NCBI GenBank assembly: GCA_026702615.1
Contig: JAPPBY010000005.1
Location: 26,661 to 90,660, forward strand
Length of the DNA: 64,000 nt
Direction of reading: 5' to 3'
DNA from: Chloroflexota bacterium
Lineage (GTDB): Bacteria > Chloroflexota > Dehalococcoidia > Tepidiformales > Tepidiformaceae
Part shown: in pieces, positions 2,522 to 51,469 of the stretch
Layout: each line of letters opens with the position of its first letter
Position numbering within the stretch: position 1 is the first letter of the stretch
Notes under the pieces: generated by a model
What the model was told of the DNA's origin: nothing
Seen by the model: the letters and a program-made list of their open reading frames with translations, nothing else
Databases searched by the model: none
Position numbers and translations under genes: made by a program

Positions 2522-2558
2522 CCGGAACCGCGGGCAAGACCCCGGAGAGGAACCATCC

Positions 2559-3362
2559 ATGTCAGTGAAAGTGCTCGTCGTGACCAAGGGCCACGGCTTC
2601 AACTACAACGGCTTCTATTCCATGTTCGATGACAACCCCGAGCTGCTCACCACGCAGGTCGAGCAGCCGGCCGCGCAGGTGCTCCTGCGCCCGGAGAACG
2701 TGGCCGAATACGACGCCGTCTGCTTCTACGACATGTGGGGCGTCGATTTCTCACCCGCGCCCGAGGAATACCAGCAGAGCATCGCCGCGCTGCTCGAGAG
2801 CGGGAAGGGCCTCATGTTGATGAACCACGCCCTCGTGGAGTGGCCCGCGTGGCCCGGCTGGCGCGACGTCAGCGGCACCTCGTTCCTGCTGACCGAGGGC
2901 GAGGTGTTCGGCGAGCTCACGCCCGGCTCCGGCTATCGCGGCGGTGGCGCTGACCCTCGCGGCAACGGTCGCGGCAAGGTCACGCCCGACCCCGCCGCCG
3001 CCGGCCACCCGGTCCTTGAGGGGCTCGACGACGGCTTCGTCGTCCAGGACGAGCTTTATCTCACCTCGAAAATCTTCGAGTCCCAGCCCGACATTCTCCC
3101 GCTCATGCGCACGGACTACCCGATGGTGCAGGAGAACTTCAACCCGCCGCCGATGGCCCCCACGGAGGAGAAGGATCGCTGGTCCCACCCCGAGGGCAGC
3201 GACCTCGTTGTTTGGGCCAAGAAGAGCGGCAACTCGCCCGTCGTCGCCACCCACCTCGGCGACGGACCCGGCAGCTACGAGAGCGAAGGCTTCCGCAGGC
3301 TCCTTCACAACACCCTTCACTGGGTGGCGTCGGAGGAAGCGCGGGCCTGGGCTGCCAGCTAG
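2559..3362 (+). CDS. ThuA-like protein, copy 2
   Basis: Paralogue of the preceding gene (267 residues). The N-terminus VKVLVVTKGHGFNYNGFY, the MNHALVEWPAWPGW segment and the C-terminal NTLHWVASEEARAWAA all match copy 1. The main difference is a deletion of a few residues after CFYDMWG (the TESPDGGAS stretch of copy 1 is missing). A longer reading frame exists upstream, but the ATG at 2559 with GGAGAGG before it matches the start of copy 1. The stop is only six bases from the end of the convergent epoxide hydrolase. The substrate is unknown. A heteromeric pair or a diverged dosage copy are both possible. Confidence 0.75.
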   Translation: MSVKVLVVTKGHGFNYNGFYSMFDDNPELLTTQVEQPAAQVLLRPENVAEYDAVCFYDMWGVDFSPAPEEYQQSIAALLESGKGLMLMNHALVEWPAWPGWRDVSGTSFLLTEGEVFGELTPGSGYRGGGADPRGNGRGKVTPDPAAAGHPVLEGLDDGFVVQDELYLTSKIFESQPDILPLMRTDYPMVQENFNPPPMAPTEEKDRWSHPEGSDLVVWAKKSGNSPVVATHLGDGPGSYESEGFRRLLHNTLHWVASEEARAWAAS

Positions 3363-9166: not shown

Positions 9167-12100
9167 TCAATCCCCCGCTGTCCAGGTAACGGCCTCTTCG
9201 GCCGTCACCCAGTAGGTCGGACCGGACGAGAACGTGGTGAGGGTGTTAAGGCCGGGGATGTCGTCCAGGTCGGGGAAGTACCCGAGCCACCGGCCCGCGG
9301 TCCCGTCCCAGGTGTAGACGGCGACCACCGCTTCGGGGAGGCCGGCCTCGGCGATAGCCACGCCACCAGGACCTGGCCACTTGAACGAGGTCCACGCTGG
9401 GCCCAGCTCGAGTTCCGCAGGCCCAGCCCCGAAGGCCACGCGGTAGACCTTCGTGCGGCTGCCGTCCGCTGAAGTGACCCTGATCGTGATCGCGGCGAGG
9501 CCGTCCAGGGCGACCTGGTGGCCGTTGGTCCTGCGGCCGTCGGCGTCGTCCGGCTTGACCTCGACCTCCGTGCGGCGCTGCACCGCCCCCGCCTCGACCG
9601 TCGTCTCCCTCGCGCCCTCGGCAATGACGCCCCGGTAGTCGGTCCGATCCGGGTCGAACACCCCGATGTCGACACCGCTGAGCCTGAGGGAGGCGAGTCG
9701 TGCGTCAATGGCATCAGGCATGTTGTAGGTGTAGACCCTGCCGTCGCTCTCGTCGGCGACGTACACGATGTCGCCGGTGGCCCAGATGCCCCGCGGACTG
9801 TTGTTGCTCGCGTCGCTCAGCTCGGCGAAGTCCTCGTCGGGGAAGCGCTCGAGGGCCGGGGGCTCTTCGGGCGGTTCGTCACCATCGGGCAAGACGGGTA
9901 CCCGGTAGGCGAAGAGGCGGCGTGGGCTTGAGCTGGGGTCGGAGACCCAGAACGAGACGCCGTCGGACCAGATGCCGCGAGGGTCGCTGTTCCGTGGGTC
10001 GAGGCTGTACCTGGCGAGGAAGTCGCCGCTCGCGAGGTCGTAAACGAAGAGGGATGGGTTGCGGTTGAGCACCCACATCGCCTCGCCGTCGGACCAGATG
10101 CCGCGCGCATTGCGGTTGTCGCGGTTGAGCACGAGGTCGCGCTCTGGGAGGCGCGCGCCGCTCTGGAGGTCGTAGGCGAACAGCGTGTTCTGGCCGCTGT
10201 CGGAGACCCAGATGGTCGTGCCGTCGGACCACACGCCGCGGGGCGCACGGTTGCGCTCGTCGAGCTCGAACTCGCGGCCTTCGACGCGCTCGCCGGTGGC
10301 GAGGTCGTAGGCGTAGATGGCGTCGTCGGCCCCATCACCGTTTTCCAGCAGCCAAACCGTGGTGCCGTCCGACCACATCCCGGTGGGGGAATCGTGACCA
10401 CTGGCCAGCGGCTCGATGTCGTGCTTCACGGTCCACTCGAAGTCGACGGTGCTCGGCGTTGGGCCTGTCCCGCCCCCACCGCCACCACCACCACCGCCGG
10501 CGAAGCCGCCTCCACCGAACGTGCCCCTGCTGGACCTGGCGATGGTGATGATCACGTCCACGGAGTCGTCGGTCGAGTCGGACGGGTTGTAGCTGGGGTT
10601 GAACCCATCGTGCACGTCCACCGTGACGTTGTGCGTCTCCTGCACGTCCGGGTCCAGCACTGCCTTCGTGCGGATCTGGCCGGTCTCCGGGTCGATCTCG
10701 AACTTGTCGGCATCCGGCCCGCTCAGGCTGTAGGTGAGGATGTCGTCCGAGTCGGGATCGGTCGCCTTCACGGGTGGGCCCACGGACCTGCCGGCCGACG
10801 TCCCCTGACCGACCGAGCGAGGCAATTCGGCCTCGTCGAAGGCCGGAGCGTTGTTCGACGACGGCTTGGTGTCGCCGATCTTCGCGGCCGTCACCGCCGA
10901 AGCGGACTTGTTGCCGCCGCGCTGGTCGGAGTACTCCACCGTCGCCCGCAGATAGTTGCCGACGTCGTCGGCGCCCGCGGTGTAGGAGCTCGACCTGGCG
11001 CCCGCGATGTCCTGCCAGCTTGAGCGGTTGGTGGACCGCGCCCACTGCCAGGCTTCACCGGACACGCTGCCGTCGTCGTCGTTGAGCACGGCGTCGAAGC
11101 GGGTGTTTTGCCAGCCGCGTAGCGGCGAGAGGGTGAGCACGCCCGCCTCTTCCACGTCCGTCACCGTGACGGTCACGTCGAGGCTTCCCGTGAGGCCGCC
11201 GGGGTCTTCGGCGGTCACCCTGATCGAGAAGCTCGTGTTGCCGCCCTCGTAGTTCGGCGGTGTCGCGAAGTACAGCTGGCCGCGGCTCGAGATCCAGAAG
11301 TCGTTGCTGTTGACCGACCACTCGAGCGTGTCGCGCTCCGGGTCGGCGCCGGTATAGGTCGCGACCGCGGCGCTGCTGTTCTCGGCGATGGATGGCGTGG
11401 TGTCCCCGCTGACCACCGGCGCCTCGTTCACGTTCGTCACGCTGATGGTGATGGTGATGGTGTCGTCGATCACGTCGTCGGCGTCGTCGTTCTGATCGGC
11501 GCCGTCGCTCACCGACACGATCACGCGGTAGCTCCGCTTGCCTTCGAAGTCCAGTTCCACGCCCGACGCCAGCCGCAGCTGGCCGCTGTTCTCGTCGATC
11601 TCGAAGGAAGTCGCGTCCGTGCCGCTCAGGGAGTAGGTGAGGGAGTCGAAGTTCACGTCCGTCGCGGCCACCGGATCCCCGATCGCGTCGCCGCCCTGGG
11701 CGTCCTCGGGCACCTCGCGCTTGCCGTTCTCCGTGACGGGGAAGGCGGGCGCTGAGTTGACCGGCGGCGGGTCGCCCACGCGCGAGGAGACCTTCGAGGC
11801 GGTCTTGTTCTGCCCGTGGCCGTCGGAGTAGGAGGCCGTGGCGCGGATGAAGTTGCCCGCATCGACCAGCGTCGGCGTGTACCTGTTGCTGGTCGCCCCC
11901 ACCAGGTTGACCCAGTCCGTACGGCCGTTGGGCGAGCGCGCCCACGCCCAGGTGACCGAGCTGGGGCCATCGTCGTCCTCGAGCACCGCCGTCACCTCGA
12001 CGCGCGCCTGGATGGTGGCCGTGAGCGTCGTGAGCGTCACGGCGCCGGCCTCGTCCACGTTGTCGACCGTGATCGTGACGTCGATCGATTGGTCGATCTC

Positions 12101-15100
12101 GGCGGAGGTGTTGCCGAGGCCGTCCTTCCCGTCGTGCACGTCGACCGTGACCTCGTAGCTGGACTTCGTCTCGAAGTCGAGGGGCTCCTTCACGCGCAGC
12201 TGGCCGCTGCTGGCGACGATGCTGAAAGAGGCCGCATCCGTCCCGCTGAGCGAGTACGTGAGCCGGTCCCTCTCGGGGTCCTCGGCGGCCACGGGGTCGC
12301 CGATGCTCGTGCCGGACCTGCTGTTCTCCGGCACGGACCGCGCGCCGTTCTCGGAGGCGGGGAAGGTGGGCTGCTGGTTCTCGCCGAAGACGCGCAGCGC
12401 GGTGATCCCCTCGGCGCGCTTGCCGCCCCCGCGGTTGTCCGTGTAGGTGACGGCCGCGCGGAGGAAGAACCCGGCGTCCGCCAGCACCGTGGTGTAGCTG
12501 CTGGTGGTCGAGGTGGAGGTCGTGTTCGGGATGTTGGTCCAGCCCGTGCGCCCGTCGCGGGAGCGTGCCCACCGCCAGCTGCGGCCGGTGATACTGCCGT
12601 CGCCGTCCGTGAGGGTGGCCTGCACCCTGACCCCGACCCCCGGCTCCGGCTCGGAGAGGGTGACCACGCCCTCCTCCTCCACGTCGAGCACCCGGATCCC
12701 GACGGTCGTGTCGTCGTCGGCCACGCGCTCGGTCTCGACTGTGCCCTGGTCGTCCCTGCCGTCGCTCACATTGACGGGCACGAGGAACAGCCCAGTCGTC
12801 GTCTCGAAGTCCAGCGCCTGGACCGTCCGCAACTGCCCGGTGGTCGGGTGAATCTCGAAGAGCGCGCCGTCGGCCCCCTCACCGATCGCGAACGTGAGGG
12901 GGTGATTTTCGCGGTCGGTGGCCGTCACGCGCTCGCCGATCTCCTCGCCGGCGCTCGTCTCCGGGATGTTTTGGGTTCCGCCGGTGCGGATGCGCGGCGG
13001 TGCGTTGGGGATCGGGTCCGGCGTGATCGCGGCCGTCGCCTCGCTCTCGGCCGACTTCCCCCCGCCCCGGCGGTCCGTGTAGGAGCTCACGATGGCGCGT
13101 ATCTCGAGGTCCGTCTCGTCCTCGTCCGCGACGTAGGTGTACTCATCCATGGCGGTGTTCGAATGGATCAGCTGCTGCCACGCGCCGCCCGACGTCCGCG
13201 TCTGGATGATCCAGGCGAACCCCCCGGAGCCCGGGAGCTGGTCCAGCACGATGCCGCCGTCCGGGTCGGAGATCATGAACGTGACGCTCTCCCCGACGGC
13301 TGGGTTGAGGTTGCTGACCGAGATCGCCCCCGCCTCCTCCACGTCCCGCACCGTCACGGTGACGGGCTGCTCGGCGGTGCGCCGGTTGGTCTTGCTCTTG
13401 ACGTCCCTCACGACGACGGTGAAGTTGTAGACGTTGTCGCCGTTCGCGTCGTCCGGGTCCTCGAAGCTGGGCGCCTCCTTGAAAACGACGTTGCCGCCGC
13501 TGTCGATCTCGAAGTCGGCAGCGTCCGTGCCAGTCAGCGACCATGTGACCCCGCCCTCCTCGTCTCGCCCGGTGTACGTGGCGATAACCGGGAAGGCGTA
13601 GGGCGGCTCCTGGAGGTTCGCGTCGAGGGTCGCGTTGTGCTCGTCGAGATTCAGGGTTGCCGTGGGCGTCCCCGTGAACTCCGGTCGCTCGTTTACGTCG
13701 TCAATCCGGATGAAAAGGTCGTAGCGCGCGACATTGGTGCCGTCGGAAGCGTTCACGGTCACCACGTAGAAATCACTGCCACTCGAGTGAGAACCCAGCG
13801 GGTTCTCACGGTCCGGGACGATGTTCCAGCGGACGATGGCCCGCTCGTCGGAGTTGGGCTCCTCGACGTTGGGGTCCTCCGCGATGACGAAGTCGATCGC
13901 GTCAAGCCCGGTGATGGTCCAGATGATGTCATCCCCCTCCTCGTCCCGGGCCTCGAACGGGTACCAGTACAACTGGTTCTCCAGGGTCGCCGGGATGGAA
14001 GCCATGTCGGCCGCCGTCGTCCCCGAGTCGTACTCGATCTCGTTAGCGTGCAGGCCCGGGCCTACCACGTCAGTGAATTCTGGCGTCTCGTTGACGTTGG
14101 TGACCGTCACCGTCATCGGGTAGTCCCGCGTGCTCACGCCGTCGCCAATCTTCACGATGACCTCGTACTGGTTGTCATCGGCGGCGTGGCTCTCGGTGGC
14201 GTTCACGCGGTCGGTCGGGTCCTCAAAGTTCGGCCCGTTCCGGAAGCTGAGCGTCCCGTGGCCGGTTGTGGCGTCCTCCATGATCTCGAAGTCGGCCGCG
14301 TCCGTGCCGGCCAGGGACCAGGACAACTGGGTGAGTGTGCTTGTCTCCTCATCCCGCGGGATGTAGGTCATGACGTCCAGGTCCGCGGACTCAGCATCCC
14401 ACTCGATCTCCGCAAAGCTCTCGTCGGGAACACCGGCCGGAATCTCTGGCGTTTCGTTGACGTTGGTGACTCGCACGGTGACGGTGAATGTCCCCACGCT
14501 GTTCGATTCACCTGCTCCGTCGTCCGCCTCCACGACGACTTCGTACATGTTGTCGGAGGCGCCCATCATGTTTGAGTCCGCCAGGTCGGCGGGGTTCTCG
14601 AAGTCCGGCTCGATGCTGAAGGACAGGACACCGGTGCTCGAGTCGATGCTGAAGTGGGCAGCGTCCGTGCCGGACAAGTCGAACGTGATCGTCTGGAGAC
14701 CGGCGTTGTCGGCGTTGTCGTCGTCGGTGGCGGTGTAGGTGCCGATGACAAGCTCGGAAGCCGTGGCGGTGTGATCGAATTCGACTTCCGCGAAGTCCGG
14801 CGTGGCGTTCCCGCTCACCACCGGTCGCTCGTTCAGGTCGTTGACCGTGACCTGGACGCTCTGTGTGTCTTCCAGCCTTGGGCTCCCGTTATCCCTTACC
14901 CGCACCGTCACGTCGTAGACGTTGTTGGTGCCGGTGTCGTCAGGCATCTCGTAGTCCGGCGGGTTCTTGAACGTGAGCTCGGCCGTTCCGTTCACGGTCG
15001 AGGTGATGTTGAAGTCCCCGGCATCATTGCCCGACAGGTCCCAGACCATCGTGCCCGTTGTCGCGTCCGGGTCCGTCGCGATGTACGTCGCGACCACGCC

Positions 15101-18100
15101 CGTCGCGTTCTCGTCGAACGTGGCGGTGGACGGGGCCGTGGTCAACGTGGGCGTCTCGTTGACGTCCGTGACGGTCACGGCGAGCGACTTGGAGATGCTG
15201 AGGTGATTCGACGCTCCCCGGGCGCCGTCGATGCCGTTGTCCGTGACCGTGACCGTGACGTTGTAGACGCCGTCGCCGCCGGCGTCCTGCTTGTCCTCGA
15301 AGTTCGGCGCGTTCTTGAAGGTGAGCACGCCGCTGGTCGCGCCGATCTCGAAGAAGGACCCGTCGTCGGCCGTTTCCACGGACCACGTCAGGGTGTTGTC
15401 CGCGTCGTCGGCCTCGTTGTTGCTGTTGTCGGGGTCGGTGGCAACGTACGTGAGCACGGAGGTCTGGTTCTCGGCGACGGAGATGGCGGTCTGGGGGGTT
15501 GTGATCGCGGGCGTCTCGTTGATGTCTGTGACGTTGACGATCACAGAGACCATGTCGTCTGTATTGGTGTTGCTGTTGCCGGCGGCGTCCTTGTTGTCCC
15601 GCACGTTCACGCTCACGTCGTAAAATTCCCGATTTTCAAAGTTGTAGCTGACGCCGCTCTTGGTCTTGATCTGTCCGGTGCTGGAATTGATAGTGAATGA
15701 TGACGCGTCGCTGCCGGTGAGCCAGTAGTGCAGCGTGTCACCGGTGTCGTCGTCGCTGGCGGCCACGGCCGCGCCGACGTCCACGTTTGCTCCGCTGTTC
15801 TCCGCCACCTCCCGCGTTATCACACCGTCCACGCCAAAGGTCGGCTCGTTGTTGCTGGCGGCAATCTGGCCCGTCACCGCACTCGCGGACTTGCCGGAGC
15901 CCTGGGGGTCGGTGTAGGACGCCGTGGCGCGCAGGTACCTGTTCACGTCCACGGCCACGCTTGTATACGTGTTGTTTGTCGCCCCGCTGATGGGGGCGAA
16001 GGGACCCGATGCCGAGGCGGCCAGCGCCCACTGCCACGTCAGGTTGGTGATGGTCCCGTCGATGTCGGTAACCGACGCCGTCAGGGTCTCCCCACCCGCT
16101 TCCGTGCCCGTGATCGTCACCGTGCCGGGCTCGTCCACGTTGGAGAGGTTGATGGTCACGGTGATGGTGTCGTCGGTCACCATGTCGGCGTTGCCGGCGT
16201 CGTCCTTTTCGTCGCTCACGTTGACGATGACGGTGTAGGACTTCTTCGAGCTCTCGAAGTCATACGTGATCCCTGACCTGGTCAGGATCTGCCCGCTTGT
16301 CGCGAGGATGGTGAAGGAAGAGGCATCCGCGCCGCTCAGCCAATACTCAAGCGTGTCGCCGTCGTCATCCGTGGCAGCCACCACAGCCCCGACGTGTACA
16401 CCCCCTCCGCTGTTCTCCGGCACGCTGCGCGTGGCGGTCGTGGTGCTGAACGACGGATCGACGTTGCCGGACGCCACCTGGCTCGACGCGGCGCTGGTTG
16501 CGGACTTTCCCGAACCGTGGGGATCCGTGTAGGAGGCCGTGGCTTTCAGGTACTTGCCCACGTCGGCGGCTACGGGCGTGTAGGGGTTGGACGTGGCCCC
16601 GCTGATGGGTGTGTAAGTCCCGAGCGCCGTGTCGGATCGCGACCACTGCCACGTCACGCTGCTGGTCGTCCCGTCATGGTCGGTCAGCGTCGCGGTTACC
16701 GCCTGCCCGGCCGTGATCGTGCCGGGCAGCGTCACCGTGCCGGCCTCGTCGATGTTGGTGATGGTGACGACGACGTTGATGGTGTCGTCGACGGCGGTGT
16801 CGGTGTTGCCGTTCGTGCTTCCGGCGGCGTTGATCTTGCTGTCGCGCACCCGCACGGTCACGTTGTAGGTGTTGTCGGTTCCCTGGTCCCTGGGGTCCTC
16901 GTAGTCGGTGAGGGCCTGGAACCTGAGCGCGCCCGTTGACGAGTTGATGGTGAAGTCGGCCGCGTCGGGGCCGCCCAGCGTCCACGTCAGCGTGTCGTCC
17001 TCGGGGTCGTCGGCCGCGTACGTCGCGAGCGGGTCGCTGGGCCCGGTCCCCTCCGGCTTGCTGATGGAGGTGTGGGACGAGCCCGTGCTCGTGATGTCCG
17101 GCGCCTCATTGACGTTGGCGACCGTGACGATGACGTCGAAGGTGTCGAACAGCGCGGGCGAGCCGCTGTCGGTGGCTACGAGGCGCACCTGGTAGGTGTT
17201 GGCAGGGGGAGTTGCCAGGCTGCCCGGCGTCTCGTAGTCCGGCGCGTCCTTGAACGAGAGTACGCCGGAGGTCGAACCGATCTCGAACAGCGATCCGTCC
17301 TGGTTCTCCTCAACACTGGTGTCGCTGTCTATCGACCAGGTGTGAGTGTTCGCCGTGTCTGGGTCCGAGACCGTGTAGGTCCCGACGGTGGTCGTGTTCT
17401 CATCGACCTCGGGGTCGAAGGTACCGCCGATTGTCGGCGGTTCATTGACGTCGTTGACGCTGATGGTCACCTTGATGCTGTCGTCCCAGATGCTGTCGGG
17501 GTCTCCGCTGGGACTTTTGCTGTCACGAACGTAGAGCGGCACGACGTAGGACGATGTGGTCTCGAAGTCCAGGGGGGCCATCGTCAAGAACTGGCCGGTG
17601 TTTGTGCCGACGGTGAAGATGAAGAAGGTCGCGGGGAACGAGTAGGTCAGCGTGTCGCCCGAGTCGTCGTCCGTGGCGATGACCGCGCCGACGTTTGTCC
17701 CAGACGTCGAGTTCTCATCAATTCTGAGGGTGGCCGTCTCGGCCGTGAACGTCGGCCTGTCGTTGCTCGCGCCGGTGTGGTTCGTCACTTGCTGGGCGGT
17801 GAACGCTGGCGCGTTGTTGGGCGTGGCCGCATCGTCCTGCACCGGGCTTGAACCGATTGTGTAGTCCAGCGTCACCGTGTCGCTGCTTGCGGCGCCCGTC
17901 GACAGCGTCAAAGCCACCTCAACGCCGCGCACGACGACGCTCGACGGGGTGTAGTCCGTGCCGCCGATGTCCACGGTGAAGTCGGTCGTGGCGGGGGTGG
18001 AGCTCTCGTTCAGGAGCTCGTTGTAGATGAGGACCAGGGACGTTCCGTCCACGTTCACCACGAGCAGTGAAGGAGGAGTGTTATCGAAGTTCTGCCGGAC

Positions 18101-18670
18101 GGGTCGCTCGGCTTGCTGCGGCTCGCTGGCCTGCTCGGACGACTCCGACTCTGGCTCCGAAGCCGGCTCGGGCGTTGCCTCGGGCTCGGGGGTAGTGGCC
18201 TCGGGGATCGTGATGTCGGTCCGGTTTGACCTGGAGCCCTGGTCGTTCGAGCGGATGCGGTAGCGGTAGTCCTGCCCGGCCGTGACGGTGCTGTCGGTGT
18301 AGGTGAGGACGCTGCCGTCGACGCTGTCGATCTTCGTCATGCGCGCACCCTGGACGTCCATGTCGCGGCGGTAGACGGCGTACTCGTCGGGCGTGCAGTC
18401 GGGCGAGGCCTCCCAGGTCAGCACCACGGCTGAGCCGTCCTCGCTGAGGGCGCTCGTCAGGTTGGTCGGGGGCACGCTGCAGGTCGCGTCGGCGCCGGCG
18501 CCGTCCGCGCTCGTGAGCAGCAGCCCGAGCAGCACGAGGAGGACCGAGACCGGAGCGATCAGGCGGCAGACGCGCCTGCGCTCAAGAAACGGAAAGTACG
18601 CCCGCGGTGCGCGATGTTTCGTCCAGGGCCGCACGGCGCGGCGAGGCCCTGGAGAGAGAAGACCCAACAC
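9167..18670 (-). CDS. Giant secreted cadherin/Ig-repeat protein with beta-propeller C-terminus
   Basis: A 3,167-codon surface or secreted protein. The N-terminal signal segment is LIAPVSVLLVLLGLLL (about 36-52). An FN3-like domain (about 62-150), an acidic Pro/Glu/Ser linker (about 150-190) and a SwmB-like domain (about 195-290) follow. Then come about 16 cadherin-like domains linked by DVNE/NVNE/DVEE motifs (15 counted), with six Ig-like domains inserted, recognised by a WQW/WAR core and a final SYTD..GGGKSA strand. A poly-Gly stretch near 2690 leads to five RG[VI]WSDG-type propeller blades. A cadherin-like beta-sandwich domain (DARLASLRLSGVDIG) ends the repeats. No sortase motif or C-terminal anchor is seen. 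Asp/Asn-rich linkers imply calcium binding; adhesion is the likely role. The start is a GTG at 18670; no closer start precedes the signal segment. Confidence 0.9.
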   Translation of the reverse strand: MLGLLSPGPRRAVRPWTKHRAPRAYFPFLERRRVCRLIAPVSVLLVLLGLLLTSADGAGADATCSVPPTNLTSALSEDGSAVVLTWEASPDCTPDEYAVYRRDMDVQGARMTKIDSVDGSVLTYTDSTVTAGQDYRYRIRSNDQGSRSNRTDITIPEATTPEPEATPEPASEPESESSEQASEPQQAERPVRQNFDNTPPSLLVVNVDGTSLVLIYNELLNESSTPATTDFTVDIGGTDYTPSSVVVRGVEVALTLSTGAASSDTVTLDYTIGSSPVQDDAATPNNAPAFTAQQVTNHTGASNDRPTFTAETATLRIDENSTSGTNVGAVIATDDDSGDTLTYSFPATFFIFTVGTNTGQFLTMAPLDFETTSSYVVPLYVRDSKSPSGDPDSIWDDSIKVTISVNDVNEPPTIGGTFDPEVDENTTTVGTYTVSDPDTANTHTWSIDSDTSVEENQDGSLFEIGSTSGVLSFKDAPDYETPGSLATPPANTYQVRLVATDSGSPALFDTFDVIVTVANVNEAPDITSTGSSHTSISKPEGTGPSDPLATYAADDPEDDTLTWTLGGPDAADFTINSSTGALRFQALTDYEDPRDQGTDNTYNVTVRVRDSKINAAGSTNGNTDTAVDDTINVVVTITNIDEAGTVTLPGTITAGQAVTATLTDHDGTTSSVTWQWSRSDTALGTYTPISGATSNPYTPVAADVGKYLKATASYTDPHGSGKSATSAASSQVASGNVDPSFSTTTATRSVPENSGGGVHVGAVVAATDDDGDTLEYWLSGADASSFTILATSGQILTRSGITYDFESSKKSYTVIVNVSDEKDDAGNADMVTDDTITVTINLSNVDEPGTVTITGTEAGGETLTASVTDIDGTITNLTWQWALAASASGPFAPISGATNNTYTSVAVDVNRYLRATASYTDPQGSGKSASAVTGQIAASNNEPTFGVDGVITREVAENSGANVDVGAAVAASDDDTGDTLHYWLTGSDASSFTINSSTGQIKTKSGVSYNFENREFYDVSVNVRDNKDAAGNSNTNTDDMVSVIVNVTDINETPAITTPQTAISVAENQTSVLTYVATDPDNSNNEADDADNTLTWSVETADDGSFFEIGATSGVLTFKNAPNFEDKQDAGGDGVYNVTVTVTDNGIDGARGASNHLSISKSLAVTVTDVNETPTLTTAPSTATFDENATGVVATYIATDPDATTGTMVWDLSGNDAGDFNITSTVNGTAELTFKNPPDYEMPDDTGTNNVYDVTVRVRDNGSPRLEDTQSVQVTVNDLNERPVVSGNATPDFAEVEFDHTATASELVIGTYTATDDDNADNAGLQTITFDLSGTDAAHFSIDSSTGVLSFSIEPDFENPADLADSNMMGASDNMYEVVVEADDGAGESNSVGTFTVTVRVTNVNETPEIPAGVPDESFAEIEWDAESADLDVMTYIPRDEETSTLTQLSWSLAGTDAADFEIMEDATTGHGTLSFRNGPNFEDPTDRVNATESHAADDNQYEVIVKIGDGVSTRDYPMTVTVTNVNETPEFTDVVGPGLHANEIEYDSGTTAADMASIPATLENQLYWYPFEARDEEGDDIIWTITGLDAIDFVIAEDPNVEEPNSDERAIVRWNIVPDRENPLGSHSSGSDFYVVTVNASDGTNVARYDLFIRIDDVNERPEFTGTPTATLNLDEHNATLDANLQEPPYAFPVIATYTGRDEEGGVTWSLTGTDAADFEIDSGGNVVFKEAPSFEDPDDANGDNVYNFTVVVRDVKSKTNRRTAEQPVTVTVRDVEEAGAISVSNLNPAVGESVTFMISDPDGGIVLDQLPGSGGFAWIIQTRTSGGAWQQLIHSNTAMDEYTYVADEDETDLEIRAIVSSYTDRRGGGKSAESEATAAITPDPIPNAPPRIRTGGTQNIPETSAGEEIGERVTATDRENHPLTFAIGEGADGALFEIHPTTGQLRTVQALDFETTTGLFLVPVNVSDGRDDQGTVETERVADDDTTVGIRVLDVEEEGVVTLSEPEPGVGVRVQATLTDGDGSITGRSWRWARSRDGRTGWTNIPNTTSTSTTSSYTTVLADAGFFLRAAVTYTDNRGGGKRAEGITALRVFGENQQPTFPASENGARSVPENSRSGTSIGDPVAAEDPERDRLTYSLSGTDAASFSIVASSGQLRVKEPLDFETKSSYEVTVDVHDGKDGLGNTSAEIDQSIDVTITVDNVDEAGAVTLTTLTATIQARVEVTAVLEDDDGPSSVTWAWARSPNGRTDWVNLVGATSNRYTPTLVDAGNFIRATASYSDGHGQNKTASKVSSRVGDPPPVNSAPAFPVTENGKREVPEDAQGGDAIGDPVAATDVNFDSLTYSLSGTDATSFEIDENSGQLRLASGVELDFEGKRSYRVIVSVSDGADQNDDADDVIDDTITITISVTNVNEAPVVSGDTTPSIAENSSAAVATYTGADPERDTLEWSVNSNDFWISSRGQLYFATPPNYEGGNTSFSIRVTAEDPGGLTGSLDVTVTVTDVEEAGVLTLSPLRGWQNTRFDAVLNDDDGSVSGEAWQWARSTNRSSWQDIAGARSSSYTAGADDVGNYLRATVEYSDQRGGNKSASAVTAAKIGDTKPSSNNAPAFDEAELPRSVGQGTSAGRSVGPPVKATDPDSDDILTYSLSGPDADKFEIDPETGQIRTKAVLDPDVQETHNVTVDVHDGFNPSYNPSDSTDDSVDVIITIARSSRGTFGGGGFAGGGGGGGGGGTGPTPSTVDFEWTVKHDIEPLASGHDSPTGMWSDGTTVWLLENGDGADDAIYAYDLATGERVEGREFELDERNRAPRGVWSDGTTIWVSDSGQNTLFAYDLQSGARLPERDLVLNRDNRNARGIWSDGEAMWVLNRNPSLFVYDLASGDFLARYSLDPRNSDPRGIWSDGVSFWVSDPSSSPRRLFAYRVPVLPDGDEPPEEPPALERFPDEDFAELSDASNNSPRGIWATGDIVYVADESDGRVYTYNMPDAIDARLASLRLSGVDIGVFDPDRTDYRGVIAEGARETTVEAGAVQRRTEVEVKPDDADGRRTNGHQVALDGLAAITIRVTSADGSRTKVYRVAFGAGPAELELGPAWTSFKWPGPGGVAIAEAGLPEAVVAVYTWDGTAGRWLGYFPDLDDIPGLNTLTTFSSGPTYWVTAEEAVTWTAGD

Positions 18671-46282: not shown

Positions 46283-46359
46283 TGGTAGCGCGTGCGGGAT
46301 TCGAACCCGCGATCTCCGCCTTGAAAGGGCGGTGTCCTAGGCCTCTAGACGAACGCGCC
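46283..46359 (-). tRNA. tRNA-Glu (anticodon TTC)
   Basis: The minus strand gives acceptor GGCGCGT/ACGCGCT, anticodon stem CCGCC/GGCGG around CTTTCAA with anticodon TTC, and the T-arm GGTTCGAATCC. Unlike tRNA-Arg in this window, CCA is encoded (46283-46285). Confidence 0.95.
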
Positions 46360-46414: not shown

Positions 46415-46783
46415 TCAGGCGAGGCGGTTACCGCTGCGGTAGCGGTCCGGGTCGTCGCGACGGTCCTCGCGCTCCCGCGCCCAGCGAGCGTTGCGCTGAC
46501 GCATCACCTTCAACACCGTCTGGATGAGCGGTCCGCGCTCCTTCCAGACATCGGCCGCCAGCGCCTTGGCGGTTGCGAGCTCCTCGGGGTCGTGGACGTA
46601 GACGTGATCGGGCTCGATGACCTCGACCGGACAGGCGTCGACGCAGAGATTGCAGTCGATACAGCCGGAGGGCTCGATCGTGTGCTGGAGGTCCGGGGTG
46701 TCGTAGTAGCGGATGGTGTCCGTGGGGCAGACGTGGCGGCAGTTCCCGCAGTTGATGCAGCCGTCGATGATCTTGAGGGCCAT
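46415..46783 (-). CDS. 2[4Fe-4S] ferredoxin with C-terminal extension (A)
   Basis: A 122-residue ferredoxin. Two CxxCxxCxxxC clusters are visible: Cys9, 12, 15, 19 and Cys41, 44, 47, 51. A helical, highly charged C-terminal extension of about 60 residues (to RYRSGNRLA) is not part of the standard fold. The ATG at 46783 is preferred over a longer upstream frame, because the first cysteine then lies eight residues in, and AAGGA precedes it. It is the last of six co-oriented genes and starts five bases after the next ferredoxin gene. It is the probable electron donor to the diiron proteins of this operon. Confidence 0.9.
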   Translation of the reverse strand: MALKIIDGCINCGNCRHVCPTDTIRYYDTPDLQHTIEPSGCIDCNLCVDACPVEVIEPDHVYVHDPEELATAKALAADVWKERGPLIQTVLKVMRQRNARWAREREDRRDDPDRYRSGNRLA

Positions 46784-46788
46784 GCCCG

Positions 46789-47136
46789 CTAGTCCTTGCG
46801 CGAGCCGCGGCGCGCCTTCTCGGGCATCACCGAGGGCCGGAACTTGGCGCGCGGGGCGAGCTCTCTCAGCAACTCGTCCTGGTTCCGCTTGCGCGCCCAC
46901 TCGCGAGCCTTGGCGAGCGCCTGCTCCAGAGCCTCGCCACTGAGGACGTTGGTGTCGTCGTAGCTGATGCAGTCAACGGGGCAGACGGGCACGCAGGCGT
47001 TGCAGTCGATGCACTCCTCGGCATAGATGGTGTGCATGAAGTCGTCGGTATCGAAGTAGTGAATCGTCTCGGTGGGGCACACGCGGCGGCAGTAGCCACA
47101 GTTGATGCAGAGCCCCTTGTCGATGACGTAGGTCAC
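46789..47136 (-). CDS. 2[4Fe-4S] ferredoxin with C-terminal extension (B)
   Basis: A 115-residue paralogue of ferredoxin A. Clusters are Cys10, 13, 16, 20 and Cys42, 45, 48, 52, with one extra Cys at 56. The GTG start at 47136 overlaps the stop of the ferritin-like gene as GTGA, so the two are coupled. The first residues (TYVIDKGLCINCGYC) mirror ferredoxin A. The C-terminal tail is basic and ends EKARRGSRKD. Two near-identical ferredoxins with different tails in one operon suggest separate partners. Confidence 0.9.
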   Translation of the reverse strand: MTYVIDKGLCINCGYCRRVCPTETIHYFDTDDFMHTIYAEECIDCNACVPVCPVDCISYDDTNVLSGEALEQALAKAREWARKRNQDELLRELAPRAKFRPSVMPEKARRGSRKD

Positions 47137-47762
47137 TCGTCGTCGTCGCTCCCGCGGATGCCGATGACGCCGCCGGCTTCGGTCAGCATCTCCTCGAGGT
47201 GCATGCGCCACTCGTTCGCGCGGCGGCGCTTCTTCGGCGTATCGGCGAGTTCCTCGATCTGGGCCCGCCCCCACTGGATGTGCTCCTCCTCGTCGATGAG
47301 GATGAACTTGAGGATGCGCACGGTGGGGGAGTCGACGACCTGGTCAGTGGCGCGCATGTGATAGAGGTAGTGCGTCGCGAGATGGGGCTTGAGGACGCCG
47401 AAGATCCCCATCACGCGCAGGATCGGGTCGTCCTGATCCTGGATCTCCTCCATGAAGGCGCGGAACTCCTCGTTGGGGGGGTCCATCTTCGGGGAGGTCA
47501 TGAGCGGGTAGGGACCCTCCGCGCCTTCCGTCATGCGCAGCTCGGGGAGGCGCTTGCCGAGCATGTCGGCGTGCTGGGCGTCCTGGTAGGCAATGGGGCC
47601 GAACTCGACCTTGTGGTGAACCTGGGGCTGGGTGGCGATCCACTGCAGCAGGGCGCGCATCATCTCCACTTCCGCATAGCGGTAGTGCATCAGGCGGCGC
47701 GCGCATTCGTCCACGGAGAACGCCCCGCCCAGCTTTCGCTGGGGATACCACAGTTCGACCAT
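47133..47762 (-). CDS. Ferritin-like, putative diiron protein
   Basis: A 209-residue all-helical protein. Potential metal-binding residues are Glu31 or Glu33 in RYAEVEMM, the DxxH motif Asp61-His64 (DAQHADML), and the ExxH motif Glu148-His151 (DEEEHIQWG). This is the spacing of a four-helix ferritin-like bundle, although the third helix ligand is not clear. No homologue was named from memory. It is the fourth gene of the operon and overlaps ferredoxin B by four bases. It could be an oxygenase component, an O2/peroxide sensor or an iron carrier. Confidence 0.65.
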   Translation of the reverse strand: MVELWYPQRKLGGAFSVDECARRLMHYRYAEVEMMRALLQWIATQPQVHHKVEFGPIAYQDAQHADMLGKRLPELRMTEGAEGPYPLMTSPKMDPPNEEFRAFMEEIQDQDDPILRVMGIFGVLKPHLATHYLYHMRATDQVVDSPTVRILKFILIDEEEHIQWGRAQIEELADTPKKRRRANEWRMHLEEMLTEAGGVIGIRGSDDDE

Positions 47763-47799
47763 CGATGACTCGCTTCCCGGCCCGGGGGCCTGGCGTTTC

Positions 47800-48045
47800 C
47801 TACTTCAGCTCTTCGCGGGGGGTGAAGTAGAGGGCGCCCGACTCGCAGAGCTGGCACTGGCTCCACTCGCCACCGGCGAAAACCGCGGCGACCTCCTCCT
47901 CGGAGTCCCACATGGTGATCTGCTCGTCCTCGAAGGTGGAGACGTGGCAATCGGGCTTTTCGCAGACGAGGTCGTGGACGAGCATGGTGGCGGTGTCGCC
48001 GCAGTAGCGCTTGAAGTTGAAGGGCGGGCGCCAGCGTTTCGCCAT
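47800..48045 (-). CDS. Small five-cysteine protein
   Basis: An 81-residue protein with Cys15, Cys28 and Cys33 in the N-terminal part and the pair CQLC at 64-67. The last four could form a zinc ribbon (CxxxxC...CxxC); this is a reading of spacing only. It has no signal peptide. It lies 23 bases after the diiron paralogue and 37 before the ferritin-like gene on the same strand, so it is in the same operon. It may be an assembly factor or small subunit. Confidence 0.65.
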   Translation of the reverse strand: MAKRWRPPFNFKRYCGDTATMLVHDLVCEKPDCHVSTFEDEQITMWDSEEEVAAVFAGGEWSQCQLCESGALYFTPREELK

Positions 48046-48068
48046 CGTCTCTCCCCGGGCTGCAGCCC

Positions 48069-48803
48069 CTAGAGCGCGAAGTCCTCGGGCGGGAGCACCT
48101 CGTCACCGGTGTTGAGGGCCATCACGAGCTCCTCGAAGGCCTGCTGCGCCTCCATCGCCTCGCGGCGCTTGGCGGCGTCGCCCTCCGTGAGGCGGGGCAC
48201 CCAGTAGTTCCCGACCTCGACGTGCATGACCTCGTCGGCGTGGTTGAAGTCAAAGGCGGTTTCCCACTGCTTGTCGCCGATGTTGCGGCCCATGTCGATG
48301 AGCGAGGTGAAGAGGTTCATAGCCATGCCCTCGCCGCCGCGATGGACGGCGGCCATGCTGTTCACCATGTTCTGCTCGCCGGTCTGGGAGACGCTGCCGT
48401 CGTCGGCGCGGTAGCCGTCGGCGAAGTCGCCGAGGGTGACGCCGTGCTCGGGCATCTTCGCCAGCACGATTTCGGCGTGACGGCACTCGTCCCAGGTGAG
48501 GCGCGCGTTGACCAGCGCCAGCTCCCAGGGGAGATCCTCGCCATCCCCGTCCTTCGTGGCCATCACGTAGCGCCGTGAGAATGCCTCGGCGCCCCCAATC
48601 TCGCCGTTGTACATGGCGTGCAGGAGGACCCTCCGCGACATCTTCTCGGGATCGCGCAGGAGGATGGAGGCGAGGTCGATGCCGTTCTCGCGCCAGTTCT
48701 CCCGCTTGTCCACGGGAAGGTAGCGGTGCGGTGGGTCTCGGCGGTGGTCGCCGGCGTTCAGGGGGCGGTAAAAGGGTCGCTCGGTGGATTCGGTGGCGGA
48801 CAT
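48069..48803 (-). CDS. Diiron ferritin-like protein, paralogue B
   Basis: A 244-residue all-helical protein with the full diiron carboxylate pattern: Glu73 (GGAEAF), Glu106-xx-His109 (DECRH), Glu158 (GGEGM) and Glu191-xx-His194 (DEVMH). This is the E, ExxH, E, ExxH order of four-helix bundles. The C-terminus and the WDECRH, DEVMH and GNYWVPRL segments resemble DUF455-like proteins. It pairs with a close paralogue 66 bases upstream, about three quarters identical by eye. The ATG at 48803 is preceded by GGAGGA. Catalysis is unproven. Candidate roles are hydroxylase, oxidase or epoxidase. Confidence 0.75.
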   Translation of the reverse strand: MSATESTERPFYRPLNAGDHRRDPPHRYLPVDKRENWRENGIDLASILLRDPEKMSRRVLLHAMYNGEIGGAEAFSRRYVMATKDGDGEDLPWELALVNARLTWDECRHAEIVLAKMPEHGVTLGDFADGYRADDGSVSQTGEQNMVNSMAAVHRGGEGMAMNLFTSLIDMGRNIGDKQWETAFDFNHADEVMHVEVGNYWVPRLTEGDAAKRREAMEAQQAFEELVMALNTGDEVLPPEDFAL

Positions 48804-48869
48804 GCATTCCTCCCCGTTGTGTGGGCTGCTCTGGCTGCGCGGCGCTCGATTGCGCCGGTGCAAGCGCTC

Positions 48870-49619
48870 CTAGAGCGCGAACTCCTTTGGCGCGGCGACC
48901 TCGTCGCCGGTGTTGAGGGCCATGATCAGCTCCTCGAACGCCTGCTGGGCCTGCATCGCCTCGCGACGCTTGGAATCATTGCCCTCCGTGAGCCGCGGCA
49001 CCCAGTAGTTGCCGACCTCGACGTGCATGACCTCATCTGCGTGGTTGAAGTCGAACGCCGTCTCCCAGTCGGGGTCGCCGATGTTGCGGCCCATGTCGAT
49101 GAGGGCGGTGAAGAGATTCATGGCCAGGCCTTCGCCGCCGCGATGCACCGAGGCCATGCTGTTGATCATGTCGAGGGCGGCGCCGGGGTTGGAGTTGCCG
49201 CTCGAGCTGCTGAGGCCCTCGCCGGCCATGTAACCGTCGACGAAGTCGCCCAGCGTGCAGCCGTTCTTGGCCATCTGCTCGAGGACGATCTCGGTGTGGC
49301 GGCACTCGTCCCAGGTGAGGCGCGCGTTGACGAGGGCGAGCTCCCAGGGGAGCTGGTCCACGCCCTCCTTCGTGGCGAGCACGTAGCGGCGACCGAAGGC
49401 CTCGGAGCCGCCGATCTCGCCGCCGTACATGGAGTGCAGGAGTACCTTCACGGGCAGCTTCTCGGGGTCTCGCAGGAGGATGGAGGGCATGTCGATGCCC
49501 TGCTCGCGCCAGTTCGAGCGCTCGCTCACGGGCAGGTAGCGGTGGGGCGGATCACGCCGGATCTGGTCGGGTGCGGGATCCTGGTAGAAGGGTCGCTCCG
49601 TCGTCGCCTCTGCGGTCAT
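48870..49619 (-). CDS. Diiron ferritin-like protein, paralogue A
   Basis: A 249-residue four-helix protein and first gene of the six-gene operon. Metal residues are Glu73, Glu105-xx-His108, Glu163 and Glu196-xx-His199, all intact. A short Ser/Gly/Asn insertion (SSSSGNSNPG) near residue 138 distinguishes it from copy B. The start ATG at 49619 has AGGAGG upstream; a longer frame exists but runs into the promoter palindrome. The two copies may form a heterodimer, as the PaaA/PaaC epoxidase subunits do, or be alternate versions. Unknown substrate. Confidence 0.75.
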   Translation of the reverse strand: MTAEATTERPFYQDPAPDQIRRDPPHRYLPVSERSNWREQGIDMPSILLRDPEKLPVKVLLHSMYGGEIGGSEAFGRRYVLATKEGVDQLPWELALVNARLTWDECRHTEIVLEQMAKNGCTLGDFVDGYMAGEGLSSSSGNSNPGAALDMINSMASVHRGGEGLAMNLFTALIDMGRNIGDPDWETAFDFNHADEVMHVEVGNYWVPRLTEGNDSKRREAMQAQQAFEELIMALNTGDEVAAPKEFAL

Positions 49620-49692: not shown

Positions 49693-50250
49693 TTAACCCA
49701 CGACCTCGCGCAGGCGGTAGATGAGGTCGCTGCGATCGCCGCGCCCCACCTGGGTGAAATTGGCCGACATCGTGGCGTTGTCGTCCAGCACGGGGTCGAT
49801 GCGGCTCCAGGAGTGGACGACGGTGCGGTGCAGGATGAGCCAGGGGCCGCCGTCGCGGCGTTCGAACACATCGACATAACGCCCGCCCCAGGTGAAGTCC
49901 GTGGCGACGCCGTCATCCCCGGCGGGGATGCGGTGGTAGGCCACGTGGTAGGTCTCGGAGTAGGCGCGGTCGCCGTCGACCTCGATGTGGGAGTTGCCGA
50001 GGAAGTGCTCGGTGCACGTGAGGTTCGAGAGGCCGACCATGACGTGCTCGGCGAACTCGAACGCGTTGCCCTTGAAGGTGCCGTGGTCGTCGTAGGCGTC
50101 GGGGTGGTAGGCGGACTTCACGAGGTCGGGATCGAGCAGGTCGATGCCGCGCGAGTAGCGCATCAGGGCATCGCGGATCTCCTGCTTGGCAAGCAGCTCG
50201 TCGATCGCGGCCTCGCGGTCGGTCTGGGTTCGGGGTTCGGTTGCCGTCAT
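49693..50250 (-). CDS. SnoaL-like (NTF2-fold) protein
   Basis: A 185-residue SnoaL-like cyclase/dehydratase-type protein. It aligns end to end with the 7801-8457 homologue: KQEIRDALMRYSRGIDLLDPDLVKSAY, then YDDHG, then the HFLGNSHIEV and GGRYVDVFERRDG strands. The last strand-helix region has the same WLILHRTVVHSW. The ATG at 50250 is preferred over a longer upstream frame. It lies upstream of the diiron operon on the same strand but is separated by the palindromic promoter, so it is probably a separate transcript. Such proteins act on ring compounds in oxygenase pathways. Confidence 0.8.
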   Translation of the reverse strand: MTATEPRTQTDREAAIDELLAKQEIRDALMRYSRGIDLLDPDLVKSAYHPDAYDDHGTFKGNAFEFAEHVMVGLSNLTCTEHFLGNSHIEVDGDRAYSETYHVAYHRIPAGDDGVATDFTWGGRYVDVFERRDGGPWLILHRTVVHSWSRIDPVLDDNATMSANFTQVGRGDRSDLIYRLREVVG

Positions 50251-50341: not shown

Positions 50342-51469
50342 ATGCCAGCGACGAAAGCCCCAGAGACCGCAGGACGCATGGCCGACGCGGCACGCGACTT
50401 CCTCGCGTCGCTCGATCCCGGGCAGCGGGAACGCGCCGTGCGCCCGCTCCTGGACGACGAGGAGCGGCGCCACTGGAACTACGCCCCCATGAAGCGCGAG
50501 GGCCTGCCGCTGCTGGCGATGACGCCGGGACAGCAGCAGGCGGCGAACCGGCTGGCGGCGACGGGCCTGAGCCGGTCGGGGTACGTGACAGCCGCGGTCG
50601 TGATGGGGCTGGAGAACATCCTCGACGCGGTGGAGGCGTGGAGCGGGGGGCGCATAGGGGTGGATGTGGGGTCCGAGCGCTGGCGTGACCCGCAGCTCTA
50701 CTTCGTGACCATCTTCGGGGACCCGGACGAGGAGACGTGGGGCTGGCGCTTCGAGGGCCACCACGTCTCCATTCACTACACGATCGAGGCAGGCAGCATC
50801 ATCGCCCCGAACCCGACGTTCCTCGGGGCGAACCCCGCGGAGGCGCCGTTCGGCGGCGATGGCACGCTGCGGCCGCTCGCCGCCGAGGAGGACCTGGCCC
50901 GCGAGCTGCTGCACGCGCTCGACGGGGAGCAGCGCGAGGCTGCGCTCATCTCCACTGCGGCTCCGCCCGACATCGTGCAGTCGAACCGGCCGCGCGTGGA
51001 GGACGGGGCGCTGCCCGTCCCGACGCGCCGCCTGATGGGCCTGCCCGACGACCCCGCCTGGGACGAACGCTGGCGCGCGGAGCGGGCCGGGCTCGGGTTC
51101 GGGCCTGAGCAGGAGGAGGCGGTGCGCTACTCCGTCACGCCGAGCGGCCTCGTGGCGGGGGCGCTGCGGGGTTCGCAGCGCGAGATGCTGGAGGAGCTGG
51201 TGGCCCTCTACGTAGACCGGCTGCCCGACGAGCTCGCGGAGAGCCAGCGGGAGGCCCTGGCGGGGGGCGCGCTCGCCGGCATGCACTTCGCCTGGGCAGG
51301 CGGGGCCGAGAAGGGGGAGCCGCACTACTACCGGCTCCAGGGGCCGCGCTTCCTCGTCGAGTACGACTGCACGCAGAACGACGCCAACCACATCCACGCG
51401 GTCTGGCGCGACCCTGAGGGCGACTTCGGGGAAGATCTCCTCGCGCGGCACTACGGCGAGCACCACTGA
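50342..51469 (+). CDS. DUF3500 family protein
   Basis: A 375-residue protein of the DUF3500 family. Recognisable segments are RRHWNYAPMKREGLPLLAM near residues 40-58, then GLSRSGYVTAAVVMGLE, then FEGHHVSIHYTIEAGSII. The C-terminal RFLVEYDCTQNDANHIHAVWRD is the usual ending. A longer upstream frame is rejected, because the ATG at 50342 follows a GC-rich divergent promoter region. Members are mostly exported or cytosolic with unknown function; no signal peptide is visible here. It is followed after 31 bases by the ketopantoate-reductase-like gene. Confidence 0.85.
   Translation: MPATKAPETAGRMADAARDFLASLDPGQRERAVRPLLDDEERRHWNYAPMKREGLPLLAMTPGQQQAANRLAATGLSRSGYVTAAVVMGLENILDAVEAWSGGRIGVDVGSERWRDPQLYFVTIFGDPDEETWGWRFEGHHVSIHYTIEAGSIIAPNPTFLGANPAEAPFGGDGTLRPLAAEEDLARELLHALDGEQREAALISTAAPPDIVQSNRPRVEDGALPVPTRRLMGLPDDPAWDERWRAERAGLGFGPEQEEAVRYSVTPSGLVAGALRGSQREMLEELVALYVDRLPDELAESQREALAGGALAGMHFAWAGGAEKGEPHYYRLQGPRFLVEYDCTQNDANHIHAVWRDPEGDFGEDLLARHYGEHH

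What the first reader, a model, noticed from the sequence alone, without database searches (positions are those of the whole stretch)
46415..49619. Six-gene operon of three putative diiron proteins with two dedicated ferredoxins
Six genes on one strand, with gaps of 66, 23, 37, 5 bases and one 4-base overlap, encode two paralogous E/ExxH/E/ExxH four-helix proteins, a third ferritin-like protein, a five-cysteine small protein and two 2[4Fe-4S] ferredoxins with unusual tails. Multicomponent diiron oxygenases such as PaaABCDE pair a diiron core with a reductase, but this combination is not one I recognise. It could be a new oxygenase or oxidase that draws electrons from low-potential ferredoxin rather than NADPH. 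A SnoaL-like gene lies directly upstream.
Basis: partly seen in the sequence, partly recalled or inferred. Interest (0 to 1): 0.78.

Follow-up and report, generated by a model that had tools for sequence, protein, structure and literature searches.

The report
Two-part diiron oxygenase with own ferredoxin
In a group of Chloroflexota bacteria, neighbouring genes encode a protein with a complete two-iron binding motif, a partner protein in which that motif is incomplete, and a ferredoxin, which together would likely form an oxygen-using enzyme that takes its electrons from its own ferredoxin.

Summary
In detail: six minus-strand genes at 46415-49619 have the stated gaps. The window's lineage duplicated A and F and has a small Cys protein, C5. 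In other Chloroflexota B and A are fused in that order in 20 of 27 distinct B places, so they very probably form one complex. A keeps six diiron ligands without substitution in 37 segments where covered. B is predicted ferritin-like but has no helix-3 carboxylate, and other candidate ligands drift. 'Three diiron proteins' becomes: A1 and A2 predicted catalytic, B predicted structural, as in PaaA/PaaC. The dedicated ferredoxin would supply electrons; no NAD(P)H reductase was recognised among the six. Near the module in relatives: a luciferase-like monooxygenase or P450 in 12 of 17 contexts. Substrate, iron and activity are untested. A new variant of the multicomponent diiron oxygenase kind.

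The parts
48870..49619 (-). A1: DUF455 protein, predicted catalytic diiron subunit (E68, E105xxH108, E163, E196xxH199)
   Evidence: Pfam PF04305 37.5 bits, cut-off 34.3; ligand conservation
48069..48803 (-). A2: second DUF455 paralogue (74% identical to A1), same six ligands
   Evidence: PF04305 44.1 bits, cut-off 34.3; 74%; separate clade from A1 in the tree, A2 clade support 89/99
47800..48045 (-). C5: 81-aa protein; C15, C28, C33, C67 invariant and position 64 Cys (4) or His (4) in 8 aligned orthologues; predicted small metal-binding (zinc-ribbon or rubredoxin-like) accessory protein, seen only in the genus and in G010
   Evidence: alignment A3; no convincing Pfam, NCBIfam or PDB match; distribution
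47133..47762 (-). B: predicted ferritin-like four-helix partner without helix-3 carboxylate; predicted structural subunit
   Evidence: AlphaFold model pLDDT 85.3, pTM 0.83; fold matches; ligand counts; fused to A elsewhere
46789..47136 (-). F1: 2[4Fe-4S] ferredoxin with C-terminal tail; GTG start overlaps the stop of B by 4 bases
   Evidence: Fer4 4e-14; overlap; eight cluster Cys in 39 of 39 ferredoxin segments of the 30 loci
46415..46783 (-). F2: second 2[4Fe-4S] ferredoxin with longer C-terminal tail
   Evidence: Fer4_7 5e-12; 40% identical to F1
49693..50250 (-). SnoaL_4-family gene directly upstream; conserved there in the genus, so a doubtful part of the system
   Evidence: PF13577 3.6e-19; present in 8 of 8 genus relatives, not found at G010

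Best explanation
The cluster encodes two DUF455 proteins (A1, A2) that carry the full six-residue diiron ligand motif, a partner B that is predicted to have the same four-helix fold but has no helix-3 carboxylate, and two ferredoxins with the cysteines for two [4Fe-4S] clusters; A and B are predicted to form a heterodimeric oxygenase in which A likely binds two irons and activates O2, B likely is a structural partner, and the ferredoxin would supply the electrons. Shown from sequence: gene order, co-occurrence, B-A fusion in relatives, ligand conservation in A, drift in B, eight cluster Cys in every F seen. Predicted: both folds (AlphaFold). Inferred: that A and B bind each other in the window organism, that iron is the metal, that F reduces A, that the reaction is a monooxygenation of an organic substrate, and that F is recharged by a 2-oxoacid:ferredoxin oxidoreductase. 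The two A paralogues would share one B and might differ in substrate. C5 would be an accessory protein of this lineage.
For: Co-occurrence: A, F and B on one strand in 30 of 30 loci from 30 genomes (tblastn with window and L062-L064 proteins; profiles). Fusion: of 27 distinct B places returned from 400 Chloroflexota genomes, 20 are B-A fusions in that order (the A half is weak, domain E above 1e-4, in 4 of the 20), 5 are separate genes with F, 1 separate without F, 1 unclear. Ligands of A: no substitution among 37 segments (up to 9 gaps per position where loci end); they are 6 of the 12 invariant columns of 62 aligned rows, mostly fusions. B: model pLDDT 85.3; fusion model pLDDT 76.5, pTM 0.81, two four-helix bundles with A's ligands inside the helices. 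Best Foldseek match of B is toluene-4-monooxygenase hydroxylase chain B, with PaaAC chain C at rank 16. The A profile's PDB sequence matches are RNR beta first, then mostly hydroxylase alpha chains (19 of 21 listed are natural diiron-type enzymes). B: no carboxylate at helix-3 positions 122, 125, 127 in 30 loci, K125 30 of 30. Precedent: PaaA catalytic, PaaC structural, same fold at 17% identity (PMC4498308, passages). Neighbours: luciferase-like monooxygenase in 9 and P450 in 3 of 17 contexts. A POR-family (2-oxoacid:ferredoxin oxidoreductase) match is in the same genome.
Against: DUF455 has no function that I found in print, so oxygenase chemistry is by analogy. PDB sequence matches of the A profile are individually weak (best E 0.0067); the B profile finds no PDB relative (best E 0.56); Foldseek matches of both models are all above E 0.001, and helical bundles score high by arrangement alone (note). 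Direct profile comparison of A with B is not significant (hhalign probability 3.5%). Around the fused genes no ferredoxin was found in the DNA fetched, except one weak hit about 6 kb off in L065, so F is not needed next to all B-A proteins. In the split family B keeps E31, H64, E158 and mostly D61, H127, H161, so a metal site in B is not excluded. 5 of 17 contexts have neither monooxygenase nor P450 among the neighbours scanned, and 3 of the 9 luciferase-like genes lie on the other strand.
Confidence: 0.55

Rival explanations
1. A-B is a ferredoxin-driven oxidase or peroxidase for O2/H2O2 removal, as rubrerythrin-type proteins do, with no organic substrate.
For: Ferritin-like fold, ferredoxin partner in all 30 split loci; part of the fold matches are bacterioferritins and Dps-like proteins.
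Against: Oxygenase genes lie nearby in 12 of 17 contexts; a heteromeric pair with one degenerate partner is the layout of hydroxylases, and 16 of 21 PDB matches of the A profile are hydroxylase alpha chains, after RNR beta.
Confidence: 0.2
2. B also binds a metal site of unusual ligands (E31, D61 or Cys, H64, K125 or H127, E158, H161), so the complex has two kinds of metal site.
For: E31 120, D61 119, H64 121, H127 121, E158 121 and H161 121 of 121 rows (window plus the 120 listed of 703 homologues).
Against: In 30 loci D61 is Cys in 8, H161 Gln in 3, H127 Gln in 1. In 11 fused relatives E31 is kept in 9, D61 in 8, H64 in 8, E158 in 6, H161 in 2 and H127 in 1. Which helix-3 residue faces the site could not be measured, since no coordinates are given.
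Confidence: 0.15
3. A is an R2-like radical-generating or R2lox-like protein rather than an oxygenase.
For: RNR beta is the top PDB match of the A profile (E 0.0067); R2lox is among the fold matches of B.
Against: Hydroxylase alpha chains are 16 of the 21 listed PDB matches; no reductase alpha gene among the eight neighbouring proteins scanned; the rest of the window was not tested for one.
Confidence: 0.07

Closest known systems
PaaABCE phenylacetyl-CoA epoxidase (PaaA-PaaC core)
   Same: Catalytic diiron subunit plus a structural subunit of the same fold, similar size (PaaAC chains of 236-248 aa); PaaA ligands E, ExxH, D, ExxH (PMC4498308, passages)
   Different: No Pfam PaaA_PaaC match over cut-off; no PaaE-type reductase or PaaB recognised among the six genes; A is DUF455
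BoxAB benzoyl-CoA epoxidase
   Same: Diiron oxygenase served by two [4Fe-4S] clusters (BoxA; PMC4498308)
   Different: BoxB is monomeric and BoxA is an NADPH/FAD reductase; here the oxygenase pair is heteromeric and the ferredoxin stands alone
Bacterial multicomponent monooxygenases (methane, toluene, phenol)
   Same: Alpha-type catalytic and beta-type partner subunits; weak sequence (A to alpha) and fold (B to T4MO chain B) resemblance
   Different: Shorter subunits (209-249 aa against about 300 and 500 in T4MO); no NADH reductase or effector protein recognised among the six; Phenol_Hydrox not over cut-off
Cyanobacterial aldehyde-deformylating oxygenase
   Different: Single subunit (recalled); B lacks the helix-3 carboxylate; 10-14% identity over the listed rows
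DUF455 (PF04305)
   Same: A1 and A2 belong to it by the curated cut-off
   Different: No function seen in the listings and passages; the A-F-B unit and the B-A fusion are not described in the titles and abstracts listed there

Membership tests
DUF455 (PF04305) | Profile match over the curated gathering score, for A1 and A2 | tested here: met
   A1 37.5 and A2 44.1 bits against 34.3
DUF455 (PF04305) | Same match for B | tested here: not met
   B 15.6 bits, E 0.013
Bacterial multicomponent monooxygenase | E, ExxH, E/D, ExxH diiron ligands in the catalytic subunit | tested here: met
Bacterial multicomponent monooxygenase | Second subunit of the same fold without an intact site | tested here: inconclusive
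   predicted fold and missing helix-3 carboxylate agree, but fold and lack of metal are not shown
Bacterial multicomponent monooxygenase | Pfam Phenol_Hydrox or PaaA_PaaC match over cut-off | tested here: not met
   PaaA_PaaC 12.5 bits for A2 (cut-off 28.5), Phenol_Hydrox 14.4 bits for B (cut-off 24.4)
Bacterial multicomponent monooxygenase | NAD(P)H flavin/[2Fe-2S] reductase encoded with it | tested here: not met
   None recognised among the six genes; the genome as a whole was not searched for one
Bacterial multicomponent monooxygenase | Diiron content and substrate oxygenation | not testable with these tools
   needs protein
BoxAB | BoxA/BoxB family match over the NCBIfam cut-off | tested here: not met
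   F1 matches benzo_boxA at 29.8 bits, cut-off 459.2; A1, A2 and B match no NCBIfam model
Aldehyde-deformylating oxygenase | Sequence family membership | tested here: inconclusive
   fold match of B only; no NCBIfam match for A or B
2[4Fe-4S] ferredoxin | Two CxxCxxC...C motifs | tested here: met
   39 of 39 segments with all eight cluster Cys

The most novel reading that the evidence does not exclude
A-F-B is a so far undescribed class of heteromeric diiron oxygenase built on DUF455, with a stand-alone low-potential 2[4Fe-4S] ferredoxin as obligate donor, so that oxygen activation is driven by 2-oxoacid oxidation without NAD(P)H; the fused B-A proteins of other Chloroflexota are its single-chain form.
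Probability: 0.35. Interest if true: 0.78.

Novelty: new variant of a known kind. Interest (0 to 1): 0.62.

Why it matters
I found no reported function for DUF455 (listings and one passage). This work gives it a partner, a likely electron donor and a testable role. If right, a diiron oxygenase that draws directly on low-potential ferredoxin would join the multicomponent monooxygenases, and it would add an oxygenase to Dehalococcoidia and other Chloroflexota. It also gives clean constructs (three genes, or one fused gene) for the bench.

Tried and rejected
Three active diiron proteins: rejected as the leading reading because B lacks a helix-3 carboxylate in 30 of 30 loci and D61 and H161 vary. 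H127 as the replacing helix-3 ligand: left open; hhalign puts another residue there at low confidence, counting along the predicted helices puts K125 nearer (my inference), and no coordinates were available. Ferredoxin as partner of a neighbouring P450: rejected, since P450 was found in 3 of 17 contexts while F is in 30 of 30 loci. SnoaL as part of the core: present in 8 of 8 genus relatives, not found at G010. Downstream amidohydrolase: by blastp on ORFs present near the module in 1 of 8 genus relatives (a short fragment near another), and a tRNA-Glu gene lies between it and F2. Single-sequence PDB searches with A1, B and one fusion: no significant match; B profile none; C5 profile none. NCBIfam: no match for A1, A2, B, C5 or SnoaL nor a good one for the fusions. 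Plasmids by tblastn with B: no match. Terminator scan: none found, 1.3 expected by chance; one promoter-like site at 49696-49667, 0.3 expected, not relied on. Mirror-tree correlation r(A,B) 0.979, r(F,B) 0.898, r(A,F) 0.906 over 26 of 30 loci (4 cut-off loci dropped): not corrected for species relatedness, so weak support. The profiles were built partly from the same loci; (plain tblastn) gives the same 30 of 30. The viral fold library was not searched. Other phyla could not be sampled. The tepid-spring Tepidiforma paper PMC10284905 holds none of the words ferredoxin, diiron or ferritin (term search only). Paper searches: listings only, beyond the passages named.
Full report
What is there. Six genes on the - strand at 46415-49619: A1 48870-49619, A2 48069-48803, C5 47800-48045, B 47133-47762, F1 46789-47136 and F2 46415-46783. 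Gaps are 66, 23, 37, -4 and 5 bases; all frames are open. A SnoaL_4 gene (49693-50250) lies 73 bases upstream and a tRNA-Glu gene (46283-46359) downstream. The window lies in a 2.87 Mb draft genome; the seven named relatives found with A1 are titled Dehalococcoidia, Chloroflexi or, one, Tepidiformaceae.

Families. A1 and A2 pass the Pfam cut-off for DUF455; B passes none (best E 0.012 Ferritin, 0.013 DUF455); F1 and F2 are 2[4Fe-4S] ferredoxins; C5 matches nothing over a cut-off. PF04305 is found in 0 of 14 named control genomes, and in this genome only at the two A genes.

Does it recur? Of 60 genomes searched with A1 (own included), 12 have a match, among them all 9 of the genus. A profile of B found 31 of 393 Dehalococcoidia genomes, own included. 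All 30 carry A, F and B on one strand: order A-F-B in 20, A-A-B-F-F in 7 (the window's included), A-B-F-F in 2 and A-B-F in 1 (the same by plain tblastn). So the core is A, F and B; in the window lineage F lies behind B and, in most genomes, A and F are doubled. C5 was found in the genus and in G010, not in the other split loci. SnoaL was found in 8 of 8 genus relatives and not at G010.

Fusion. B was also searched in 400 Chloroflexota genomes (own included): 22 have it. The 28 loci returned stand for 27 distinct places (one protein was listed twice). 20 are single proteins with a B domain followed by an A domain (A half weak, domain E above 1e-4, in L045, L047, L054 and L055), 5 are separate genes with F (the window included), 1 is separate without F, and 1 (L060) is unclear. 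Around the fused genes (1.5 kb either side of the B match; longer stretches for 11 of them) the ferredoxin profile hits nothing but one weak place about 6 kb off in L065. Genes that are fused elsewhere usually make one complex; this step is inference, but strong.

Ligands. In A the six ligands E68, E105, H108, E163, E196 and H199 show no substitution in 37 segments of the 30 loci; up to 9 gaps per position, where loci are cut. In 31 aligned A rows, including four general DUF455 proteins, five of the six are invariant and E68 nearly so; one row is truncated there. In 62 aligned rows, mostly fusions, the A-half ligands are 6 of 12 invariant columns. One fused relative, L072, has Lys for one Glu. 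In B, candidate residues E31, D61xxH64 and E158xxH161 sit inside helices 1, 2 and 4, but helix 3 carries K125 and H127 instead of a carboxylate. Counts over 30 loci: K125 30, H64 30, E158 30, E31 29 plus one gap, H127 29 (1 Gln), H161 27 (3 Gln), D61 22 (8 Cys). In the 121 rows (window plus the 120 listed of 703 homologues) these residues are almost constant. In 11 fused B halves E31 is kept in 9, D61 in 8, H64 in 8, K125 in 10, E158 in 6, H161 in 2 and H127 in 1. The simplest reading: A has the active site, B is a partner whose site is incomplete and decaying.

Surroundings in relatives. For 17 split loci outside the window's family flanking DNA was fetched (the same-family loci G010 and G022 are not counted; at G010 a CoA-transferase gene lies close). 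A luciferase-like monooxygenase lies within two genes of the module in 9 (on the other strand in 3 of them) and a P450 next to it in 3. In the other 5 (two to three on short contigs) the neighbours scanned are peptidases, a glyoxalase, regulators, a VTT-domain protein, a dodecin and others. The 17 genomes and the window's hold 13 to 72 luciferase-like matches each, so chance adjacency within two genes is a few percent by my estimate; the loci are related, so 9 of 17 is not 9 independent events. Among the window's own next neighbours (SnoaL, DUF3500, amidohydrolase) there is neither.

How it likely works (inferred). The ferredoxin, recharged by the 2-oxoacid:ferredoxin oxidoreductase family member found in this genome (PF01558), passes electrons to the diiron centre of A, held in a heterodimer with B. 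Reduced A binds O2 and oxidises an organic substrate. Two A paralogues would share one B. Their separation is probably older than the genus: G005 (support 98/97) and, less surely, G010 (87/89) fall with A1; G008's place is unresolved in the tree, though it is closer to A2 by identity.

What is known. PaaA and PaaC share a fold at 17% identity; PaaA is catalytic and PaaC structural; BoxA, with two [4Fe-4S] clusters, serves the monomeric diiron epoxidase BoxB (PMC4498308, passages read; BoxB ligands in PMC5489048, passages read). The locus looks like a mixture of the two but belongs to neither family by the profile tests. Searches for DUF455 (15 papers listed of 15), for ferritin-like with Dehalococcoidia, ferredoxin and monooxygenase (0 papers), for ferritin-like with 4Fe-4S, DUF455 or PF04305 (15 listed of 63) and for uncharacterized ferritin-like protein, Chloroflexi and oxygenase (8 listed of 359) showed no paper on this unit in titles and abstracts (the library holds open-licence papers only).

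Against. Activity, metal and complex are all untested; the fused form does without a neighbouring ferredoxin; the distribution is patchy (31 of 393); B's site is not wholly lost in the split family; 5 of 17 contexts show no oxygenase neighbour; the substrate is unknown.

Noticed in passing
window 9170-18535 (-): A 3122-aa open frame with nine cadherin-domain stretches (PF00028, E 4.8e-91), a very large predicted surface or secreted protein.
   Followed up: partly
window 1700-3359 (+): Two tandem ThuA-family genes whose proteins begin almost identically.
   Followed up: partly
window 50378-51466 (+): DUF3500 gene divergent from the SnoaL-diiron cluster.
   Followed up: no
whole genome G000: 46 luciferase-like monooxygenase matches in a 2.87 Mb genome.
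   Followed up: no
window 49696-49667 (-): Promoter-like site TTAACC-18-TATCAT about 48 bases before A1; 0.3 such sites expected by chance.
   Followed up: no
P0009, P0015, P0020 (proteins): Three different A paralogues list the same longest-contig length of 3,324,687 bases, so another genome probably holds at least three A genes.
   Followed up: no
L105:1183-1605: An F420H2-dependent quinone reductase-like gene lies between the luciferase-like gene and B in G583.
   Followed up: no
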